A DNA stretch of 64,000 nucleotides from Azospirillum formosense (GTDB taxonomy: Bacteria > Pseudomonadota > Alphaproteobacteria > Azospirillales > Azospirillaceae): positions 992,001 to 1,056,000 of the forward strand of contig NZ_CP159402.1 of the NCBI RefSeq assembly GCF_040500525.1, in the 5' to 3' direction. The notes under the pieces are model-generated. The model ran no database searches. It saw nothing but the letters and a program-made list of their open reading frames with translations, and was not told the DNA's origin. Shown in pieces: positions 36,058 to 47,265 of this stretch. Every line of letters begins with the position of its first letter. Position 1 is the first letter of the stretch. The translations under genes were made by a program, and so were the position numbers.

Positions 36058-36151
36058 GAGACAGGTGCGACACTCCGTCACCGGCACCCCCGGTCTCCGC
36101 GCCGGTAGACTGGACCTAATTCGTCCTGTTTCGATGCGGAGCACCAACCCC

Positions 36152-36583
36152 ATGGCGGAAGTGATCTTCTACGGTCTGTCCGGCTGCACGGCGAACGCCA
36201 AGCAGAAGCTGCAGCTCCAGGCCGCCGGCCACACGCTGGTGGAGCGCGATCTGGCCGCGGAGCCCCTCACCGCCGAAACCCTGCGCCCCTTCTTCGGGGA
36301 CCGTCCGGTCGAGGACTGGTTCAACCGCCGCGCCGCCGCCGTGAAGACCGGCGCCGTGAAGCCCGACGAGCTGGACGAGGAGTCGGCGCTGGCTGCCCTG
36401 CTGGCCGACCGCGACCTGATCCGCCGCCCGCTGCTCCAGGTCGGGGCGGACCGCAAGGCCGGGTTCGACCCCAACGCGCTGCACGCCTGGATCGGCCTGA
36501 CCGCGTCCGGCGAAAGCTGCGACGACAAGCATTCGCGCGGCGTCTGCGACCATGGCCATCACCATTTCCCGAAGCAGGGCTGA
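36152..36583 (+). CDS. NifO-like ArsC/Spx-family protein
   Basis: The 143-residue protein has the thioredoxin-like ArsC/Spx fold. The opening VIFYGLSGCTANAKQKLQLQAAGHTLVERDLAAEP, the RPFFGDRPVEDWFNRRAAAVK block and the FDPNALHAWIGL segment match the nitrogenase-associated NifO family. The C-terminus adds a Cys/His-rich tail (SCDDKHSRGVCDHGHHH) that could bind a metal. Family members are found with nif genes, but no nif genes lie in this window. ATG 36152 follows GCGGAGC; earlier in-frame starts reach into the repeat. A role in nitrogen fixation is inference by family only. Confidence 0.75.
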   Translation: MAEVIFYGLSGCTANAKQKLQLQAAGHTLVERDLAAEPLTAETLRPFFGDRPVEDWFNRRAAAVKTGAVKPDELDEESALAALLADRDLIRRPLLQVGADRKAGFDPNALHAWIGLTASGESCDDKHSRGVCDHGHHHFPKQG

Positions 36584-36616: not shown

Positions 36617-38716
36617 GTGGTTGAATGCCGGGCTATGGACCGGCCCGACCAAGAGCTTGCGGAACTCCTCTCCAGCCTGGGCGCGCGCCTCTCCGCCGCG
36701 CCGCCCGGTGCCTTGGCGCATCTCCGCGAACCGTTGCGGGCGCTGCGCGACCGGCTGTCCACCGTCCTGGATGACCCGACGTCATGCCAGCCTCCGGAGG
36801 ACGGCGAGACGCATTTCCGTGCCTTGCTGTCCGACGCCATCGGCTGCGTGTCCGAAGGCTTCGTGCTGTTCGGCGCCGACGGGCGGCTGGTGCTGTGCAA
36901 CGACCGGTACCGCGCCGCCTACCCGCTGCTGTCCGACCACCTGGTTCCCGGCGTCCGCTTCGCCGACCTGCTGCGGGTCGCGGTGGAGCGGGGGGCCGCC
37001 GGCGACGATCTGGGCGACCCGTCCGACTGGATCGCCGAGCGGCTGAGCCGTCATATCCGCAGCGGGCCGCCGACCGACCACCAACTCGGCGACGGGCGCT
37101 GGTACCGCATCAGCGAACACGCCACGCGCTTCGGCGGCGTGGTCAAGATCCTCACCGACATCACCGAGCTGAAGCGGCACGAGGAGGCGCTGGCCGACAG
37201 CGAGGCGCGCTACCGCCGGCTGGTGGAGATGGCGCCCTACGGCATCCTGATCTGGGACGGGCTGCGGCTGCGCTTCGCCAACCGCTCCGCCGCGCTGATC
37301 CTGGGCAGCGGCGATCCCGAGGCCATGCTGCGCATCCCGCTGGTCGAGGCGACGGAGTTCGACGGGATTCAACGCCTGTTCGACTGGCTGCCCCCGCCCG
37401 GCGGCGGGCTGGAGGCGCCCCCGCCGGTCGAGGCCCGCTTCCTCACCGCGCAGGGCGCCCTGCGCGAGCTGGAGGTCGGCATCCACCCCTTCGCGGTTGA
37501 GGGGGAGGCGGCGTGGTTCCTCGTCCTCATCGACATCACCGGGCGCAAGCAGGCGGAGCGCGCCATCCAGCAGGCGCAGAAGATGCAGGCCATCGGCCAG
37601 CTGGCCGGCGGCATCGCCCACGAGTTCAACAACATGCTGACGGCCATCGGCGGCTTCGCCCAGATGGCCCGCCGCGCTCCGCAGGACCGGCCGCGGGTCG
37701 AGCAGTGCCTGACCGAGATCGTCAAGGCGACCGACCGCGCCTCCGGCCTGACCGCCCAGCTTCTCAGCTTCGGGCGGCCCGGCCAGACCGACGCGGCGCG
37801 TCCCGTGCGCGTCGGCGCGGTGATCGACGATCTGCGCCGCTTCCTCGGCCCCACGCTGGGCGAGCGCCACCCGCTGCGGACCGAAGGCGCCGGGGGCGGG
37901 GCGGTGGTGACCATCGACCCGGCCCTGCTGCACCAGTCGCTGCTCAACCTCGTGCTCAACGCCCGCGACGCCATGCCGGAGGGCGGGCCGATCACCATCG
38001 CGGTGGAGCGGCCGGACGGTCTCGGAGTCACCATCACCGTCGCCGACACCGGTTGCGGCATCGACCCGGCGGTGATCGACCGCATCTTCGAACCCTTCTT
38101 CACCACCAAGGAGCCGGGAGCCGGAACCGGGCTGGGGCTGGCGCTGGTCTATTCCACGGTGGCGCGGGCCGGCGGCACGGTCGAGGTGGACAGCGAGCCG
38201 GGGCGCGGCACCGTTTTCACGCTCCGCTTCCCGGCGGAGGACGCCGCGGAGCCGCAGGAGGCGGACGCCCCCGGCCTGGACGCCTTTGGTCTTGATGGCC
38301 CCGCCTTCCTCGACGCGGAGGATGGGGAACCGGAGGGGCTTTCGATGGCCGCCACCGTCCTTCTGGTCGAGGACGAGGCGCAGGTGCGCGACTTCATCCG
38401 CCTGACGCTGGAGGACATGGGCATGCGGGTGGTCTGCGCCGCCGACGGCAGCGAGGCCCTGCGCGCCTACGCCGACCATGGCGGGGCCTTCGACCTGCTG
38501 GTGTCCGACCTCGTGATGCCGCAGTTCGGCGGGGCGTCGGTGGCGCGCGCGCTGCGCCGGGAGAATCCGGACCTGCCGGCCGTCCTGATGTCCGGCTACC
38601 CGCCGGAGACGGAAAGCCTGGACGACCTGTTGGCGGAAGGATGCCGCACCGTCTTCCTGCGCAAGCCGATCAACCCGGACGAACTGGCCGACACCATCCA
38701 CGCGCTGCTGATCTGA
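36617..38716 (+). CDS. PAS hybrid histidine kinase, pair 1
   Basis: The 699-residue soluble protein has two PAS domains (about 70-190 and 193-315). The kinase core follows: phosphoacceptor His335 in [12 protein letters not shown]-box in LNLVLNARDAM, and G-boxes DTGCGID and GAGTGLGLAL. A C-terminal receiver holds phosphoacceptor Asp631 in VSDLVMP. The linker before the receiver is acidic. No membrane segment is seen, so the signal is probably cytosolic. The GTG start at 36617 follows GGAGGA; ATG 36635 is an alternative. The response regulator gene starts 13 bases later. The second pair downstream encodes a clear paralogue of this kinase. Confidence 0.85.
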   Translation: MVECRAMDRPDQELAELLSSLGARLSAAPPGALAHLREPLRALRDRLSTVLDDPTSCQPPEDGETHFRALLSDAIGCVSEGFVLFGADGRLVLCNDRYRAAYPLLSDHLVPGVRFADLLRVAVERGAAGDDLGDPSDWIAERLSRHIRSGPPTDHQLGDGRWYRISEHATRFGGVVKILTDITELKRHEEALADSEARYRRLVEMAPYGILIWDGLRLRFANRSAALILGSGDPEAMLRIPLVEATEFDGIQRLFDWLPPPGGGLEAPPPVEARFLTAQGALRELEVGIHPFAVEGEAAWFLVLIDITGRKQAERAIQQAQKMQAIGQLAGGIAHEFNNMLTAIGGFAQMARRAPQDRPRVEQCLTEIVKATDRASGLTAQLLSFGRPGQTDAARPVRVGAVIDDLRRFLGPTLGERHPLRTEGAGGGAVVTIDPALLHQSLLNLVLNARDAMPEGGPITIAVERPDGLGVTITVADTGCGIDPAVIDRIFEPFFTTKEPGAGTGLGLALVYSTVARAGGTVEVDSEPGRGTVFTLRFPAEDAAEPQEADAPGLDAFGLDGPAFLDAEDGEPEGLSMAATVLLVEDEAQVRDFIRLTLEDMGMRVVCAADGSEALRAYADHGGAFDLLVSDLVMPQFGGASVARALRRENPDLPAVLMSGYPPETESLDDLLAEGCRTVFLRKPINPDELADTIHALLI

Positions 38717-38729
38717 TGGCGGGGCATCG

Positions 38730-40682
38730 ATGAGCGCCGCTCCACCATCCTCAACCCTGTCGACCGACGGCATTCCCATCGGCGTTTACGACGTCGACGC
38801 GCTCCTTGGCGAGCTGAGCGGCGACGCCCCGGTGGAATCGCCGGAGTCCGCCGTCTGCGTCCGCGTCGAGGAGATCTTCGCCCCCGCCGCGCGATTCCTG
38901 ATCGCGGAGGAGCTGGCGGAGTTCCTGGAGGCGCGCGGCATCACGCCCACCGAGTTCCTGCACAAGGTGGAGCCGCAGCGCTCCTTCCTCGACTGGCCGC
39001 GCCGCGCCCAGGTGCTGGAGCGGGTGGCCCAGCGGCAGGCCCGCCCCGGACGCCGGTCGCCCGCCATGCGGCTGGAGGAGCTGAAGCGGCTGGAGCAGGA
39101 GGTGCTGGCCGTCACCGCCCGGCGCGCCCACGGCGGCACGGCTCTGGCCATCGACGCCAAGCAGTTCGCCGCAACGGTCGCCCAGACCATGGCGCGGACG
39201 CCGGGTTTCCCCGGGCGCCACACCATCGATTGCTGGCTGTCCGCCTGGCTGGGGGAAGGGCGCAACCACGAGCTTCGGCTGGTGCGGATCCTGTCGCTCG
39301 ACGGCGACGGGCTGTCCGGCGAGGGCATCGCCATCCTCGACCAGATCGTCGGGGAAATGCTGGCCAACGGGCTGGTGGTCGAGGCGCTGTTCGGCTGGGC
39401 GGACGGGCTGCGCGGCGTGCTGGACGCCATGGCGATGGTCTGGCGTGGCGAGGCGCCGTCGCACCCCGACGCCCCGGCGGTCCTGCACCGCCTGTCCGCC
39501 TTCGTCGCCCGTCATCAGGCGCGCGCCGCCCGGCTGGGGCTGGAGGCGGGGGTTCACCACGCCCTGCTGGGGGATGCGCCGCTGTCCGGCGGCAAGGCGG
39601 AGCCGAACAGCGTGGCGGCGGTGCTGGACGAGCTGTCGGCGATCAGCCTCCTCGCCGCGCGCCTGACGGTGAAGGGCGGGGTGATCGGCGGGGAGCGCAC
39701 GACCCGGCTGATCGACCGGCGGGTGGCGCTTCTGCTGTCCGGCGCGCGGCTGGAGGCGGTGCTGCACGCCAAGAGCCACTACGCGCGCATTGTCGATCTG
39801 CTGGCCTTCGAGGGGGCGGTGTCGGGGGAGCGCAGCCGGCGCATGATCGTCGCCCATCTGCGCCGCCATCTCGAGGCCCGCGACTTCACCCAGCGCCTGT
39901 TCGAGACGGCCCGCACGCCGCGCGCCCGCATCAAGGCGCTGGCCGACTTGCAGCGGCGCGTGCAACGCTCGACCCTGCCGGACGGGCTGCGCGAGCGCTA
40001 CGTCCGCATGCTCGACGAGATCCAGAACACCTTCCTGCGCACCAACAAGGTCTTCGCCCGCATCGCCAAGGACCGGCCTCCCCAAGTCGACGAGGTCATG
40101 GAATTCGCCAGCCTGCTCGCCGAGGGCGCCTTCACCGAGGGGAAATGCGTGGCGGCGGCGCGCGAGCTGGTCGGGCACCATGTCCGCTCCACCGCCTTCC
40201 TGCGCGGCTACCTCGCCCGCTGCAAGGACGCGACGGAGCAGCGGGCCGAGCGCTTCGCGCGGTTCTTCGCGACGCTGGCCGAGGCGGGCCTGCCGATGCG
40301 CGCCATGAACACGCTGCGCGTCCTGCTGGCCGACGACGAGCCGGCCGCGCGCGGCTATGTCGAGATGATCCTGCGCGACCTCGGCATCACCGACCTCACC
40401 ATCGCCCAGGACGGGCGCGAGGCGCTGACCCGATTCGAGGAGCGGCAGGGCGCCTTCGACCTGATCGTCTGCGACTGGAAGATGCCGCGCCTGTCCGGGC
40501 TGGAGTTCCTGAAGCTGGTCCGCGCGGTGCGGCCCGACATGCCCTTCCTGATGGTCACGGCGCTCGCCACCATCATCGCGGTCGAGGAGGCGATGGCCCA
40601 CGACGTCACCGCCTACATCGCCAAACCCTTTTCTCCCGAACAGCTCGAGGAGAAGATCCTGGTTCTGGTGAACCGGCGCTGA
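38730..40682 (+). CDS. Receiver protein with long helical N-terminal region, pair 1
   Basis: The family of residues 1-525 is not recognised. This part is mainly helical, with the motif TPTEFLH near residue 75 and DEIQNTFLRTNKVF near residue 430, both repeated in the pair-2 regulator. The C-terminal receiver (about 526-650) has the acidic pair in LLADDEPA, phosphoacceptor Asp582 in VCDWKMP, and Lys in YIAKPFSPEQ. No DNA-binding domain is visible. The regulator follows its hybrid kinase by 13 bases, so they probably act together. The receiver is at the C-terminal end, opposite to usual transcription factors. Confidence 0.8.
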   Translation: MSAAPPSSTLSTDGIPIGVYDVDALLGELSGDAPVESPESAVCVRVEEIFAPAARFLIAEELAEFLEARGITPTEFLHKVEPQRSFLDWPRRAQVLERVAQRQARPGRRSPAMRLEELKRLEQEVLAVTARRAHGGTALAIDAKQFAATVAQTMARTPGFPGRHTIDCWLSAWLGEGRNHELRLVRILSLDGDGLSGEGIAILDQIVGEMLANGLVVEALFGWADGLRGVLDAMAMVWRGEAPSHPDAPAVLHRLSAFVARHQARAARLGLEAGVHHALLGDAPLSGGKAEPNSVAAVLDELSAISLLAARLTVKGGVIGGERTTRLIDRRVALLLSGARLEAVLHAKSHYARIVDLLAFEGAVSGERSRRMIVAHLRRHLEARDFTQRLFETARTPRARIKALADLQRRVQRSTLPDGLRERYVRMLDEIQNTFLRTNKVFARIAKDRPPQVDEVMEFASLLAEGAFTEGKCVAAARELVGHHVRSTAFLRGYLARCKDATEQRAERFARFFATLAEAGLPMRAMNTLRVLLADDEPAARGYVEMILRDLGITDLTIAQDGREALTRFEERQGAFDLIVCDWKMPRLSGLEFLKLVRAVRPDMPFLMVTALATIIAVEEAMAHDVTAYIAKPFSPEQLEEKILVLVNRR

Positions 40683-40806
40683 GCGGTGGAAATCCTATGC
40701 TCACGGTGGAATCCGTTCGTATGAAGGCGAACAACGAAACCGGCTGTTAACGGCTCGCCTCCTATTACGGGTCTATGCGCATCGCGCCTTTCGCGGTGGT
40801 ACACCC

Positions 40807-43452
40807 ATGAGGATGGAGCGGGGCTCCGTGGATCTTTCCGGCCGGGGCGGGCTGCCCCCCACCGACACCGACCTTGACGTGCGTGCCGGCCGGCTGGCCG
40901 GGGAAGCCGCGCCGCGCCGTGGGCCGGGCGGGCTGACCGACCTGCTGTTCCTCATGCTCGGCGCCGCCGGCCTGCTGGCCGTGATGATGCCGGAGGAGGG
41001 GCGCGACCGGCTGATGCTGCCGCTCGGCGTGATGACGCTGGCGATGGCGGCGCTGGCCGTGCTGTCGGTGCGCCGCGCCCGCGCCGCGGCGGCGGCGTTG
41101 GACCGCTCCGCCCGCCTGCTGCGGGCCGCCAACGAGGAACTGGCCGCCAGCCGCCAGCGCTTCCGCGATTTCGCCGAGGCCGCGTCCGACTGGTTCTGGG
41201 AGAGTGCCCCCGACCACCGTTACACCTACGTGTCCGAACGGCTGCCGGAGATCCTCGGCGGCGATCCGGCGCCGGTGTTCGGCGATTCGCTGCTCGACCT
41301 CGGCGCGCTGGTCGAGGACACCGACACCTGGCTGGACCATCTGGCCGACATCGAGGCCGGGCGGGCCTTCCGCGACCTGGAGGTCACGCTGCGCGACGGG
41401 GCGGGCGACACCCGCGTCTTCCGCATCAGCGCCCAGCCCTTCACCGACGCGGACGGGCGGTTCGCCGGCTACCGCGGCACCGGCATCGAGACGACCGCCG
41501 AGACGCTGGCCCTGGTCGAGGCGCGCTTCATGCAGTCGGTGGTGCACGACGCGCTGTCCAGCATCTCTGAGGGCTTCGTGCTGTTCAGCCCGGACGACCG
41601 GCTGATCTTCTGCAACGAGCGCTACCGCAGCGCCTACCCGAATCTGGCCGACGTGCTGGTGCCCGGCACCGCCTTCGAGGACATCCTGCGCGCCGGCGCC
41701 GAACGCGGGGGCTACGAGGGCGACGACCGCGAGATGGCCGACTGGATCGCCGAGCGGATGAAGCGCCACCTGCTGCACACCGATCCGGTGGACGGCCGCC
41801 TGTCCGACGGACGCTGGTACCGCATCAGCGAGCACGCCACCGGTTCCGGCGGCATCGTCAAGATCCTGATGGACATCACCGAGCTGAAGCGGCGGGAGGA
41901 GCAGCTCGCCGGCCAGACGGAGCGGCTGGAGGCCACCGTCAGCGCGCTCAGCGAGAGCGAGAAGCGCTACCGCCAGCTGGTCGAGCTGGCGCCCTACGGC
42001 ATCGTCATCTGGGACCGCCGGGCCATCCGCTTCGGCAACGCCGCGGCGGCGTCCATCCTGGGGGTCGACGGCAGCGGCGGGCTGGAGGGGGTTGACCTCA
42101 ACCGCTTCATCGTCGAGGCGGATACGGTGACGGCGCGGCTGGGGCTGGGCGCGGAGGGCGACCAGCAGAGGGTCGAATGCGCGATCGCCCGCCCGTCGGG
42201 CGAGCAGCGTCATGTGGAGATCGGCGCCTTTCCCGCGGTCTACCAGCGGGAGCCGGCGGTTCTGCTGGTGCTGAACGACGTGACCGAGCGCCGCCGCGCC
42301 GAGGCGGAGCTGCAGAAGTCGCAGAAGATGGAGGCGGTGGGCCGCATGGCCGGCGGCATCGCCCACGAATTCAACAACATGCTGACCGCCATCGGCGGAT
42401 TCGCCCGGCTGGCCGAACGGGCGCCGGACGATCCGGGGCGCGTCACCACCTGCGTGCGGGAGATCGCCAAGGCGTCCGACCGGGCCGCCGCGCTGACCGC
42501 CCAGCTTCTCGACTTCTCGCGCCGACGCCCCTCGGACGAGAGGGAGGTGGTGGCGCTGGCGCCGCTGGTGCGCGACCTGAAGGTCTTCCTGAAGCCGCTG
42601 ATGAGCGCCGGCATCGATCTGGACATCCGCATCGGGGATGGGGACGCCCACGCCGTCGCCAACCCGGTGATGCTGAACCAAGCCATCCTCAACCTCGCCC
42701 TCAACGCGCGCGACGCCATGCCGGACGGCGGACGGCTGACCATCGCGCTGGACAGCGTGCTGCCGGACGGGGCCTTCTTCGGGCGGCACGGCGCGCTGGC
42801 GCACGGGCGCTACGCCGTGATCCGGGTCATCGACGAGGGCTGCGGCGTGCCGGAGGCGGTGCGCGACCGCATCTGGGAACCCTTTTTCACCACCAAGGAG
42901 CCGGGCAAGGGCACCGGCCTCGGCCTGTGGATGGTCTACGGCACCGCCCGGCAGGCCGGCGGCGCCGCCGAGATGGAGGCCGGGCCGGACGGGCGCGGCA
43001 GCGTCTTCTCCATCCATCTGCCCGCCGTTCCCGCCCCCGTTCCGGCCGTTTCGCTGGCGGGCGGGCTGGGGCTGGGCGAGGACGAGGGGGCCGCCATCCT
43101 GCTGGTGGACGACGAGGATTCCGTGCGCACCTATGTCCGGCTGGCGCTGGAGGAGGCCGGCTGCACGGTGACGGAGGCGGTGGACGGGCTGGACGCGCTG
43201 GAGCGCTGGGACGAATGCGGCGGGCTGTTCGACGCCGTGGTGTCCGACATGTCCATGCCGCGCATGAACGGCCTTGAGCTGAGCCGCGCCTTGGCGGAGC
43301 GCAACCCCGACCTGCGCATCCTCTTCCTGACGGGCTACGCGTCCCATGAGACGGCGGCGGACATGACGGCACAGCCGGGCCGCCGGATCGTCATGAAGCC
43401 AGTGGCTCCGGACCGCCTGATCGAGGCGGTGCGTGAGCTGCTGGCCGAATGA
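40807..43452 (+). CDS. Membrane PAS hybrid histidine kinase, pair 2
   Basis: The 881-residue protein starts with two predicted membrane helices (about 42-62 and 70-90) with hardly any periplasmic loop. Three PAS domains follow (about 115-235, 248-365 and 380-495). The kinase core has His520 in [12 protein letters not shown]-box in [11 protein letters not shown], and G-boxes EGCGVP and GKGTGLGL. The C-terminal receiver has Asp814 in VSDMSMP. The second and third PAS domains are near copies of those in the pair-1 kinase. It starts at ATG 40807, with a second ATG six bases on. Compared with its paralogue it has gained the membrane anchor and one PAS domain. Confidence 0.85.
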
Positions 43453-43466
43453 GACGGGAGTCGGGA

Positions 43467-45347
43467 ATGGCTTCGGACCAGCGCAACACGGACGGCGGCC
43501 GGGAAACCGACGCCGACGGCGGAATCGACACAGCGGTCTGCCGGACCCCGGAGGACTTCTACACCCCGCAGGGCCGCGACAGCATCGGCCGGCATTGCCA
43601 GCGCTATTTCGACGAGAACGCGCTGACCCCGACCGAGCTTCTGCACTCCCCCCGCCACCAGCAGAGCCTGTCCAACATCCCGACCTTCGTCGCCATCCTG
43701 CAGCAGGCGGAACGGGCGATGGACCGCAAGGGCGCGCTGACCGCCCTGGTCAACGAGGTCGCCCGCGTGACCCGCGAGCGGCTGAAGGACGCCCAGCCGC
43801 CGGACCTGACGCCGGCCAGCTACGCCGCGACGGCGGAACGGCTGATCGCCGCCCGCGACGCCTTCACCGGGCGCTTCATGGTCGACGCGGCGCTGACCAC
43901 GCATCTGTACCAGGGCCGCAGCTTCGCCGAGAAGGCGCGGCTCCTGCTGGAACTGGCGGACGGTCTGGAGGACGCCGACGCGCTGGCGCCGCTCGACCGG
44001 CTGCTCGGCGAGATCCTGCGCAGCGACACCGGCACCGCCTCCTGCTCGATGGACGCGCCCTTCGTGGACCGGGTGGACATGATCGTGTCGCTGATCGCCG
44101 GCGACAAGCCGCTGTCCGACGAGGCGCCGCCGGTCTTCCGGGGGCTGGAGACGCTGGTGCGCCGCACGGCCATGCCGGTGCTGAGCGACAGCCTGATCTT
44201 CGCGCTGCGCCGCGAATTGTCGAAGCCCGACCGCTTCACCATCACCAGCGCCGGCGACCTGTTCGGGGTGGAGGCGGTGCAGCGGGAGATCATGGCGCTG
44301 AGCCAGGTGTCGCAGCGGCTGCGCACGGGAGAGGGCTATTTCGGCGGCGCCCGGACGGAGGCGGCGCTCCAGCGGCGCAGCGCTCTGCTCGTCAACGAGG
44401 ACACGCTGCCCGAGATCACCAAGGGCCGGACGCTGATGCAGAAGCTCCGCATCCTGTTCGTCCTGCAGAGGATGCCCCTGTCGCCGAGCGCCGAGCGGGC
44501 GGTGAACGGCTACCTGACGCAGTTCTTCGACGGGCGGGATTTCGCCGGGCGCCTGCTCGACTGCTGGAAGGAGAAGACCGAGAAGCTGAAGGGGCTGGCC
44601 GAGGTGCAGAAGCTCGTGCTCGACAGCGCCTTCGCCGAGGACGCCCGCGAGCACATGGCCGGGCAGATCGACGAGATCCAGAACGCCTTCATCCGCACCC
44701 AGCGCCTGCTGAGCCCCCTCCAGGGCAAGGACGAGCCGAACCCCGACATGGTGCTGGAGATGGTGCGGCTGGCCGGCGACGGCGCCTTCTGCCGCGGCAA
44801 GAGCCGGGCGGCGGTCGCCAAGGCGCTGTACCGGCAGGTGCACCGGCCGCGCTTCGTGCGCTCCTTCCTGCTGGGCGCCACGGGCGGCAAGGAGCGCTCG
44901 GCCCGCGCCTCCTGGATGCGTGGGGCCCTGGGGGTGATCGGGGTGCCCTTCATCGACCTCGGCGCCATCCGCGTCCTGGTCGTCGACGACGAGGACGGGC
45001 CGCGTCACTTCGTCGAATCGGTGCTGCGCGACCTCGGCATCGGCCACATCGACACGGCGGCGGACGGGCAGGAGGCGCTGCTCCGGCTGGCCGGGGACGG
45101 GGCATACGACCTGATCGTCTGCGACTGGATGATGCCGAAGGCCAGCGGCCTGGACGTGCTGCGCCGCGTCCGCGAGGTGCGGCGCGATCTGCCCTTCCTG
45201 ATGGTGACGGCGCTCGCCACGCTGAAGGCGGTGGAGCGGGCGCTGGCCCACAATGTCAGCGCCTACATCGCCAAGCCCTTCACCCCGGAGCAGCTCGAGG
45301 AAAAGGTCTTTCTCGTCCTGACGCAAAAATCGGCCCCCGGCGCCTGA
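43467..45347 (+). CDS. Receiver protein with long helical N-terminal region, pair 2
   Basis: The 626-residue protein is a paralogue of the pair-1 regulator. It shares TPTELLH near the N-terminus, DEIQNAFIRTQRLL near residue 410, and the end of the receiver (AYIAKPFTPEQLEEK). The receiver (about 500-620) has Asp553 in VCDWMMP and VDDED as acidic pocket. The N-terminal 490 residues have no known domain and look helical. ATG 43467 is preferred to 43449 because GGGAG lies 6 bases before it and the first ATG overlaps the kinase stop. The kinase ends 14 bases before, so this is the second kinase-regulator module. Confidence 0.8.
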   Translation: MASDQRNTDGGRETDADGGIDTAVCRTPEDFYTPQGRDSIGRHCQRYFDENALTPTELLHSPRHQQSLSNIPTFVAILQQAERAMDRKGALTALVNEVARVTRERLKDAQPPDLTPASYAATAERLIAARDAFTGRFMVDAALTTHLYQGRSFAEKARLLLELADGLEDADALAPLDRLLGEILRSDTGTASCSMDAPFVDRVDMIVSLIAGDKPLSDEAPPVFRGLETLVRRTAMPVLSDSLIFALRRELSKPDRFTITSAGDLFGVEAVQREIMALSQVSQRLRTGEGYFGGARTEAALQRRSALLVNEDTLPEITKGRTLMQKLRILFVLQRMPLSPSAERAVNGYLTQFFDGRDFAGRLLDCWKEKTEKLKGLAEVQKLVLDSAFAEDAREHMAGQIDEIQNAFIRTQRLLSPLQGKDEPNPDMVLEMVRLAGDGAFCRGKSRAAVAKALYRQVHRPRFVRSFLLGATGGKERSARASWMRGALGVIGVPFIDLGAIRVLVVDDEDGPRHFVESVLRDLGIGHIDTAADGQEALLRLAGDGAYDLIVCDWMMPKASGLDVLRRVREVRRDLPFLMVTALATLKAVERALAHNVSAYIAKPFTPEQLEEKVFLVLTQKSAPGA

Positions 45348-45579: not shown

Positions 45580-47265
45580 ATGTTCGATAATGTGTCCATC
45601 CGCTCGAAGCTCTGGGGACTGGTGGCTTTGGCGAGCGTCGCGTCGGCGGCCGTCGTCGGGGCCGGCCTCTGGCTGAATTACCAGCGCATGCATGCGGACC
45701 GCGTCCAGTCCCTGCGCTTCATGGTGGAGGCCGCCCACAGCATGGCCGCCGCCTACGAGGCGGAGGCCGCCGCCGGGCAGATCACGCGGGAGGAGGCGCA
45801 GGCCCGTTTCAAGCGGTCGCTTCTCGGCATGCGCTACGGCGGGCAGGAGTATCTGTTCGCGATCACGCTGGACGGCTTCGGCTTCGCCCACCCCAGCCCG
45901 AAGCTGATGGGGCAGAACGTGTCCGGCGTGAAGGACACCAAGGGCGCGCCGATCCTGATGGACATGGCCCGGATCGCCAAGGCCTCGGGGGAAGGCACCT
46001 ACGGCTATTACTGGAACGTCGCCCCGAACAGCGACGAGACCGCCGCCAAGCTGTCCTACATCAAGGTCTTCCAGCCCTGGGGCATCTACATCGGGACGGG
46101 CGTCTTCATCGACGACATCCGCGGTGCCTTCCTGGGCACGCTGTGGACCGTTCTGGTGGTAGCCGGTCTTCTGGCGGTGCCGGCGGTCGCCCTGATCGCG
46201 CTGGTCGGCGTGCGGCTCAGCGCCACGATCCGCAGCCTCAGCGCCCGCATGCACGCGCTGGCGGACGGCGATCTCTCGGTCTCCTTTCCCGAGGCGAACC
46301 GCCGCGACGAGATCGGCGCCATGGCCGGCGCCGCCCGCGTGTTCCTGGGCAACGCCGCGGAGAAGAAGCGCCTGGAGGCCGATCAGGCCGCGGCGCTGCG
46401 CCGCTCGGAGGAGGACAAGCGCCGCACCCTCGCCGGTCTCGCTGAACGGTTCGAGCGGAGCGTCGGCGAGGTGATGAAGTCGGTGTCGCACGAAACCGAG
46501 GCGATGGAGCGCGAGGCCCAGGAGATGACCCGCGCCGCCGGGCAGACCGACCGGCTGGCCGGGGCGGTGGCGTCGGCGACGGAGCAGACCTCGGCCAACG
46601 TGCAGACGGTCGCGGTCGCGACGGAGCAACTGTCGGGCTCGGTGGGGGAGATCAGCCGCCGGGTCGCCGACGCCTCGCGGATCGCGCGCGAGGCCGCCAC
46701 CGCGTCGGAGCGCGCCACCGGCAAGGTGACCGGGCTGGCCGAGGCGGTCGGGCGGATCGGCACCGTGGTCAGCCTGATCAACGACATCGCGGCGCAGACC
46801 AATCTGCTGGCGCTCAACGCCACCATCGAGGCGGCGCGCGCCGGCGAGGCCGGCAAGGGTTTCGCGGTGGTCGCCGGCGAGGTGAAGAGCCTCGCCAGCC
46901 AGACCGCCAAGGCGACCGAGGAAATCGCCGCCCAGGTCGCCGGCGTCCAGTCCGCGACCGGCGAGGCGGTGGCGGAGATCGGCGGGGTGGCGCGGGTGAT
47001 CGAGCAGGTGAACGGCATCGCCACCATCATCGCGTCGGCGGTGGAGGAGCAGGGGGCGGCGACCCAGGCGATCAGCCGCAACGTGCAGCAGGCCGCCGAG
47101 GTCACCCGCGATGTGGCGCGCGACATCTCCGGCGTGACCGCCGCCGCCGGGCAATGCGGGAAGATGGCCTACGCCGTGCTGGAGGCATCCCGGCAACTGG
47201 CCCAGCAGTCGGAGACCCTGAACGGCGAGATCGGCGGATTCCTCGGCACCCTGCGCACGCAGTGA
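45580..47265 (+). CDS. Methyl-accepting chemotaxis protein, single-Cache type
   Basis: The 561-residue receptor has an N-terminal membrane helix (about 12-32), a periplasmic domain of single-Cache type (about 35-185, with [22 protein letters not shown] and YYWNVAP), and a second membrane helix (about 190-212). A HAMP domain and a cytoplasmic signalling domain follow. The hairpin tip [33 protein letters not shown] is well conserved and would bind CheA and CheW. Single-Cache domains often bind small organic acids; the ligand is unknown. It follows the two kinase-regulator pairs after an AT-rich gap, in the same direction. Confidence 0.93.

What the first reader, a model, noticed from the sequence alone, without database searches (positions are those of the whole stretch)
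36617..45347. Duplicated module: hybrid PAS kinase plus regulator with a roughly 500-residue unknown helical region
Two kinase-regulator pairs stand head to tail. The kinases share PAS domains and the His-box [11 protein letters not shown]. The regulators share TPTE(F/L)LH, DEIQN(T/A)F and an almost identical receiver end (AYIAKPF). The regulators have the receiver at the C-terminus and no DNA-binding domain, so the N-terminal helical region is the likely output or input. That region does not match any family I can name. Gene duplication with later gain of membrane helices and one PAS domain in kinase 2 is the simplest history.
Basis: partly seen in the sequence, partly recalled or inferred. 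Interest (0 to 1): 0.7.

Follow-up and report, generated by a model that had tools for sequence, protein, structure and literature searches.

The report
Kinase-regulator pairs with undescribed helical domain
An Azospirillum chromosome carries two old sister pairs of signalling proteins, each a sensor kinase and a partner made of a known switch domain plus a large helical domain that matched no family in the libraries searched; the partner probably acts by binding other proteins rather than DNA, and forms of the helical domain without the switch occur in many related bacteria.

Summary
Confirmed: 36617-45347 holds two head-to-tail pairs, each a PAS hybrid histidine kinase (HK) and a regulator (REG) with a C-terminal CheY-like receiver and a ~470-residue N-terminal domain (DOM). 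REG1/REG2 are 33% identical, HK1/HK2 45-50%.

New here: (1) DOM reached no curated cut-off in Pfam or NCBIfam and matched no PDB sequence credibly. AlphaFold2 gives a confident all-helical domain; its profile holds internal repeats. (2) DOM is a wider alphaproteobacterial family (82 of 82 Azospirillaceae genomes; 83 of 385 sampled Alphaproteobacteria), usually without a receiver, once seen fused to a Ser/Thr kinase. (3) HK and REG are inherited as a unit: of 45 Azospirillum genomes, HK1 and REG1 occur in the same 18, HK2 and REG2 in the same 44; the last has neither pair. (4) Five relatives outside the genus have kinases with N-terminal membrane segments, so HK1 more likely lost its anchor than HK2 gained one.

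Most likely mechanism (inferred): receiver phosphorylation gates a helical protein-interaction scaffold. Bolder: REG mimics receiver-less DOM proteins and competes for their partner (PhyR-like logic).

New variant of a known kind; function untested; fold of DOM alone could not be searched.

The parts
36617..38716 (+). HK1: hybrid histidine kinase, 699 aa (GTG start; an ATG lies at 36635), no N-terminal membrane segment
36848..37186 (+). HK1 PAS_7 (residues 78-190)
   Evidence: E 1.1e-17
37205..37339 (+). HK1 PAS_8 (residues 197-241)
37595..37783 (+). HK1 HisKA (residues 327-389; His 335)
37916..38239 (+). HK1 HATPase_c (residues 434-541)
38357..38698 (+). HK1 receiver (residues 581-694; Asp 631)
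38730..40682 (+). REG1: helical domain plus C-terminal receiver, 650 aa
38841..40283 (+). REG1 helical domain (DOM, residues 38-518)
   Evidence: profile match; AlphaFold2
40320..40658 (+). REG1 receiver (residues 531-643; Asp 582, Thr 610, Lys 632)
40807..43452 (+). HK2: hybrid histidine kinase, 881 aa
40933..40989 (+). HK2 hydrophobic segment 1 (residues 43-61)
   Evidence: Kyte-Doolittle 2.09
41014..41070 (+). HK2 hydrophobic segment 2 (residues 70-88)
   Evidence: Kyte-Doolittle 2.16
41206..41502 (+). HK2 PAS_4 (residues 134-232), no counterpart in HK1
41554..41901 (+). HK2 PAS_7 (residues 250-365)
41965..42288 (+). HK2 PAS_8/PAS_9 region (residues 387-494)
42340..42528 (+). HK2 HisKA (residues 512-574; His 520)
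42664..43026 (+). HK2 HATPase_c (residues 620-740)
43096..43434 (+). HK2 receiver (residues 764-876; Asp 814)
43449..45347 (+). REG2: helical domain plus C-terminal receiver, 632 aa (likelier start at 43467)
43521..44930 (+). REG2 helical domain (DOM, residues 25-494)
   Evidence: profile match; AlphaFold2
44973..45308 (+). REG2 receiver (residues 509-620; Asp 559, Thr 587, Lys 609)
   Evidence: Asp 559, Thr 587 and Lys 609 invariant in the 36 rows

Best explanation
The region encodes two ancient paralogous two-component modules. In each, a PAS-domain hybrid histidine kinase senses a signal (HK2 probably at the membrane, HK1 probably in the cytosol) and passes phosphate to the intact C-terminal receiver of its partner REG. 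REG carries no DNA-binding or known enzymatic domain; its output is a ~470-residue all-helical domain (DOM) with internal repeats, which most likely works as a protein-interaction scaffold whose contacts are gated by receiver phosphorylation. DOM belongs to a wider alphaproteobacterial family most of whose found members have no receiver; the REGs are the receiver-bearing branch. Shown by computation: gene content, paralogy, unit inheritance of HK and REG, intact receiver residues, all-helical prediction, the breadth of the family. Inferred: phosphotransfer HK to REG, scaffold function, gating.
For: Domains and absence of any other domain above cut-off in REG. HK1 and REG1 in the same 18 of 45 genus genomes, HK2 and REG2 in the same 44 of 45 (REG2 of G030 in two contig pieces), match ends of partners under 160 bases apart on one contig and strand; G040 lacks all four. 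34 of 36 DOM-receiver loci have the kinase directly upstream. Receiver Asp, Thr and Lys invariant in 36 REG rows. AlphaFold2: mean pLDDT 86.8 and 86.5, DOM all helix except a short hairpin. Internal repeats: best off-diagonal HHalign score 54.2 against at most 19.7 in 25 column shuffles and 28.0 against the reversed profile. A DOM fused to a Ser/Thr kinase in the same genome. Some receiver-less DOM genes lie in signalling clusters (L221, L225, L209/L210).
Against: No phosphotransfer, partner or phenotype is known. Both kinases are hybrids without an Hpt domain above cut-off, so phosphate may go elsewhere or through another protein. Most receiver-less DOM genes sit beside housekeeping-looking genes, which does not point to signalling. 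Helical repeats need not mean a scaffold. The fold of DOM alone was not searched: structure hits were filled by the receiver.
Confidence: 0.58

Rival explanations
1. Mimicry and partner switch: DOM of REG resembles the receiver-less DOM proteins of the same cell and, when phosphorylated, competes for or sequesters their partner, the logic of PhyR (C-terminal receiver, N-terminal mimic).
For: Six DOM copies in this genome, two with receivers, three with a common N-terminal module, one with a Ser/Thr kinase. Full-length homology of REG DOM and receiver-less DOM. Receiver at the C-terminus.
Against: No partner of any DOM protein is known; identity between REG DOM and receiver-less DOM is only about 20-24%, so partner surfaces may have diverged.
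Confidence: 0.18
2. DOM is an input: a ligand- or protein-sensing domain that controls phosphorylation of the attached receiver, which itself is the output (a CheY-like signal).
For: The receiver is CheY-like (35-39% identity and 1.3-1.7 A rmsd to CheY structures). DOM lies N-terminal, as sensor domains often do; it also precedes a Ser/Thr kinase.
Against: The attached kinase partner already has PAS sensors; no pocket or ligand evidence was sought.
Confidence: 0.14
3. DOM supplies the missing histidine phosphotransfer (Hpt-like) step of the hybrid kinases.
For: Both kinases have a receiver but no Hpt domain above cut-off; DOM is helical.
Against: No Hpt match in Pfam. The best conserved His of REG (H66 of TPTELLH) is 'nearly invariant' among REGs but is Tyr or Asn in several receiver-less members.
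Confidence: 0.04
4. Adaptor for regulated proteolysis or for a pole or motor complex, in the manner recalled for RssB or CpdR: a special case of the scaffold reading.
For: A response regulator without DNA-binding domain and with a large interaction-type domain; no direct evidence.
Against: No similarity above cut-off to RssB or CpdR outside the receiver.
Confidence: 0.06

Closest known systems
CckA-type hybrid histidine kinases (NCBIfam NF046020, NF046026)
   Same: PAS domains, HisKA with IAHEFNN box, HATPase_c, C-terminal receiver; best NCBIfam matches of HK1 and HK2
   Different: 289.9 and 311.1 bits against a cut-off of 1000; partner is an adjacent DOM-receiver protein
PhyR, the general-stress response regulator (recalled)
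   Same: Receiver at the C-terminus, no DNA-binding output, N-terminal helical region
   Different: PhyR has a short sigma-like domain; here ~470 residues with no sigma-family hit above cut-off in Pfam or NCBIfam
CheY
   Same: Receiver sequence and fold, 'AKPF...LEEK' end
   Different: CheY is the receiver alone
'Unclassified' response regulators of the Azospirillum survey (PMC4618731: abstract, passages and sections 18-19 seen)
   Same: Azospirillum response regulators with no known output: 2-10 per strain in its Table 5
   Different: The seen text does not describe this domain or this pair; supplementary tables were not available, so I cannot say how its authors classed these genes

Membership tests
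Hybrid histidine kinase (HK1, HK2) | HisKA + HATPase_c + receiver in one chain, each above cut-off | tested here: met
Hybrid histidine kinase (HK1, HK2) | Phosphorylatable His and receiver Asp present | tested here: met
   H335/D631 and H520/D814 by motif position; activity not tested
CckA (NCBIfam equivalogs) | Score above the curated cut-off of 1000 bits | tested here: not met
   best 289.9 (HK1) and 311.1 (HK2) bits
Response regulator (REG1, REG2) | Receiver domain with acidic pair, Asp, Thr, Lys | tested here: met
PhyR | C-terminal receiver | tested here: met
PhyR | N-terminal sigma-factor-like domain | tested here: not met
   no sigma family in the Pfam scan of REG1 and REG2 up to E 1. 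Of the 24 DOM rows scanned in NCBIfam, 2 gave a sub-threshold sigma-related hit, best E 0.0031; treated as chance
PhyR | Phosphorylation-dependent binding of an anti-sigma factor (NepR) | not testable with these tools
   needs biochemistry
Hpt phosphotransfer proteins | Hpt domain with conserved His | tested here: not met
   no Hpt match; H66 not conserved in receiver-less members
Known helical-repeat families (TPR, HEAT, ARM) | Sequence match to a repeat family | tested here: not met
   no repeat family among the Pfam hits up to E 1 for 24 DOM rows
Known helical-repeat families (TPR, HEAT, ARM) | Fold match of the domain alone | tested here: inconclusive

The most novel reading that the evidence does not exclude
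REG proteins are phosphorylation-controlled mimics of a widespread receiver-less helical-repeat protein of Alphaproteobacteria: kinase input makes REG bind, or release, the same partner as the receiver-less DOM proteins, a partner switch with PhyR-like logic but an unrelated fold and target, run in some Azospirillum by two kinases, one at the membrane and one in the cytosol, whose phosphotransfer segments are so alike that they may feed both regulators.
Probability: 0.18. Interest if true: 0.72.

Novelty: new variant of a known kind. Interest (0 to 1): 0.43.

Why it matters
Response regulators are classed by output domain. Here a ~470-residue helical output reached no curated cut-off in the family libraries tested, was found in all 82 Azospirillaceae genomes searched and in 83 of 385 sampled Alphaproteobacteria, and is tied to a specific hybrid kinase by unit inheritance. 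It gives a concrete start on a widespread family annotated 'hypothetical protein' where I saw an annotation (one plasmid record), and Azospirillum brasilense, a harmless plant-growth bacterium, is a tractable host for testing it.

Tried and rejected
Gain of membrane helices in HK2: rejected in favour of loss in HK1 (the hydrophobicity screen is crude: of 30 HK2 sequences 16 show two N-terminal segments, 12 one, 2 none). Duplication inside the genus versus before it: not decided (the HK tree puts HK1 with the outside kinases at 95/80, the REG tree is unresolved, 83/77; AU tests do not reject one Azospirillum clade). Hpt in DOM, sigma-like domain in DOM: no support. Weak sub-threshold leads not followed: DncV_C on REG2 residues 55-112 (E 0.036, 14.4 of 28.4 bits; PADLOC oligonucleotide cyclase on the same stretch, E 0.021); NCBIfam hits with best E 0.0031 in 2 of 24 rows.

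This says nothing about whether the fold is new. Finding a pathway from neighbours of receiver-less DOM genes: conserved neighbours look like housekeeping genes (names by eye, not by call: glmM, folP, serC, serA, thiD, polA, rlmB), no function follows. HK next to receiver-less DOM: of 59 flanked loci (L031-L050, L177-L196, L209-L228 without L222) a single-sequence screen flagged a kinase in 2 (L194, L226), neither directly adjacent; the screen is insensitive, as it missed the L221 kinase that Pfam shows. Plasmid search with REG2 gave 83 records, none covering 80% of the query; the rows listed matched the receiver part. Literature: searches (no papers); listings only except PMC4618731 (abstract, passages, sections 18-19) and PMC8789113 (passages). 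None of what I saw describes this domain; PMC holds open-licence papers only.

Rows dropped before counts: 38 of the 74 loci (L134-L171) matched by the receiver region and were not counted as REG; 8 near-identical rows were left out of the HK tree; 36 rows were chosen for A4. Genome counts are lower bounds where few candidates were scored per genome (4, 3).
Full report
WHAT IS THERE. HK1 (36617-38716) and HK2 (40807-43452) are hybrid histidine kinases with PAS domains, HisKA, HATPase_c and a receiver; REG1 (38730-40682) and REG2 (43449-45347) have a C-terminal receiver and, before it, a long stretch that reached no Pfam cut-off. Gaps are 13 bases (HK1-REG1), 124 (REG1-HK2) and an overlap of 4 (HK2-REG2, if REG2 starts at 43449). 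M7 of REG2 (43467) is invariant in 36 relatives and is the likelier start.

PARALOGY. REG1 and REG2 align over 614 columns at 33%, HK1 and HK2 over 666 at 45%. Searched with HK2, the genome gives HK1 as the best other match at 50%, then kinases at 35-41%, most over the catalytic core. In a tree with eight other hybrid kinases of this genome, HK1-type (8 rows, 100/100) and HK2-type (26 rows, 100/99) fall in one 39-row group (100/100) together with five kinases from outside the genus. REG1-type (7 rows) and REG2-type (24 rows) are each 100/100 and all 36 REG rows are separated from ten DOM rows without receiver at 99/99. Whether the duplication lies inside Azospirillum or before it is open: the HK tree groups HK1 with the outside kinases (95/80), the REG tree is unresolved (83/77), and holding the Azospirillum rows together is not rejected (AU p 0.283 and 0.121).

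UNIT INHERITANCE. In 45 Azospirillum genomes, HK1-type matches (66% identity or more) occur in 18 and REG1-type matches (54% or more) in the same 18; HK2-type in 44; REG2-type in 43 at the threshold plus G030, where one search shows it in two contig pieces; G040 has none of the four. By the listed coordinates partner matches end under 160 bases apart on one contig and strand. In 17 of the 18 genomes with both pairs they lie on one contig; in G017 they are on different contigs. The loci give the same picture with names: 34 of 36 loci with a DOM-receiver gene (L098-L133) have the kinase directly upstream; the exceptions are L130, a contig that begins inside the gene, and L131, where the kinase is on the other strand. 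Single pairs occur in Caenispirillum (L126), Insolitispirillum (L127), Rhodospirillaceae bacterium BRH_c57 (L128) and a Rhodospirillum MAG (L132). Shared ancestry inflates such counts, but HK and REG of a pair were missing together wherever one was missing.

MEMBRANE ANCHOR. HK2 has two N-terminal hydrophobic segments (residues 43-61 and 70-88), HK1 none; all five outside kinases have two; of 30 HK2-type sequences 16 show two, 12 one and 2 none; of HK1-type only the window's and L129's are complete and neither has one at the N-terminus. Loss in HK1 is therefore simpler than gain in HK2.

THE HELICAL DOMAIN. A profile of 24 rows (A2) finds DOM in 82 of 82 Azospirillaceae genomes and in 83 of 385 genomes drawn from the class (four candidates scored each, so a lower bound). 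In a draw of 398 genomes of the phylum 20 matched, all of them of the same class (how many of the 398 lie outside the class was not shown). This genome has six copies (78 of 78 candidates scored): REG1, REG2, one with a C-terminal Ser/Thr kinase (L048, Pkinase E 1.1e-30), and three with a separate N-terminal module of about 80 residues (the third match is weak, E 0.002). That module too has no Pfam match. In the class draw only 2 of 385 genomes, both Azospirillum, gave a match running through DOM and receiver; 25 others matched one part only (three candidates scored each). Matches of DOM to known families: none above a Pfam or NCBIfam cut-off for 24 rows, none in PHROGs for 4 proteins, one meaningless PDB sequence hit at E 1.9. 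In PADLOC the kinase part of L048 matches kinases of defence systems, as any Ser/Thr kinase might; DOM parts gave one hit at E 0.021.

STRUCTURE. AlphaFold2 on alignments of 36 and 34 sequences gives mean pLDDT 86.8 and 86.5, pTM 0.69 and 0.67; both models show DOM as about 28 helices with one short hairpin at the conserved GG motif, then the receiver. The DOM profile aligned to itself gives off-diagonal matches (best 54.2) far above 25 column-shuffled profiles (at most 19.7) and above the reversed profile (28.0), so it contains diverged internal repeats. That it is a solenoid is my inference. The receiver matches CheY in sequence and structure. A search with DOM alone could not be made.

CONTEXT OF DOM WITHOUT RECEIVER. 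Conserved neighbours look like housekeeping genes (names by eye). A minority lies in signalling surroundings: L221 has a kinase with HAMP, HisKA, HATPase_c, receiver and Hpt, then a single receiver, a small protein and a short DOM protein; L225 has a GAF-HD protein next door; in L209 and L210 DOM is followed by a receiver protein of about 240 residues, and in L210 preceded by a MarR protein.

HOW IT MOST LIKELY WORKS. Shown: the parts, their co-inheritance, intact phosphorylation residues. Inferred: a signal on the PAS domains sets HK autophosphorylation; phosphate reaches the REG receiver directly or by way of the kinase's own receiver and an Hpt protein; the receiver then changes what DOM binds. 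The region after the phospho-His is identical in HK1 and HK2 for 14 residues, so cross-talk is plausible. The boldest reading is that REG imitates receiver-less DOM proteins.

VERDICT. Real, well conserved, and a new variant of a known kind: a two-component pair with an undescribed helical output. The biology is untested.

Noticed in passing
L048 4806-7799 (this genome, second contig): DOM fused to a C-terminal Ser/Thr protein kinase; seven plasmid records of Azospirillum cover at least 80% of it at 80-90% identity.
   Followed up: partly
L125 1282-3234; G002:C5:274249-276198: REG1 is broken in two frames in A. brasilense BR 11026 and a match with one in-frame TAG is seen in G002; intact copies exist in other strains.
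   Followed up: no
L129 4081-6369: The HK1 frame of A. halopraeferens begins with a LysR-type helix-turn-helix (HTH_1, residues 16-71); could be a fusion or a frame running in from a gene remnant.
   Followed up: no
L221 2626-7167: A kinase with receiver and Hpt, a single receiver, a 147-residue protein without Pfam match and a short DOM protein stand in a row.
   Followed up: partly
window 36065-36583: An ArsC-like small protein (by eye) directly upstream of the module has relatives at the same place upstream of HK2 in L104 and L105, where HK1-REG1 is absent.
   Followed up: no
window 45580-47265: A probable methyl-accepting chemotaxis protein (by eye) follows REG2 here and in the A. brasilense, A. 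tabaci, A. isscasi and OGB3 loci, but was not called in the other Azospirillum loci.
   Followed up: no
   Followed up: no
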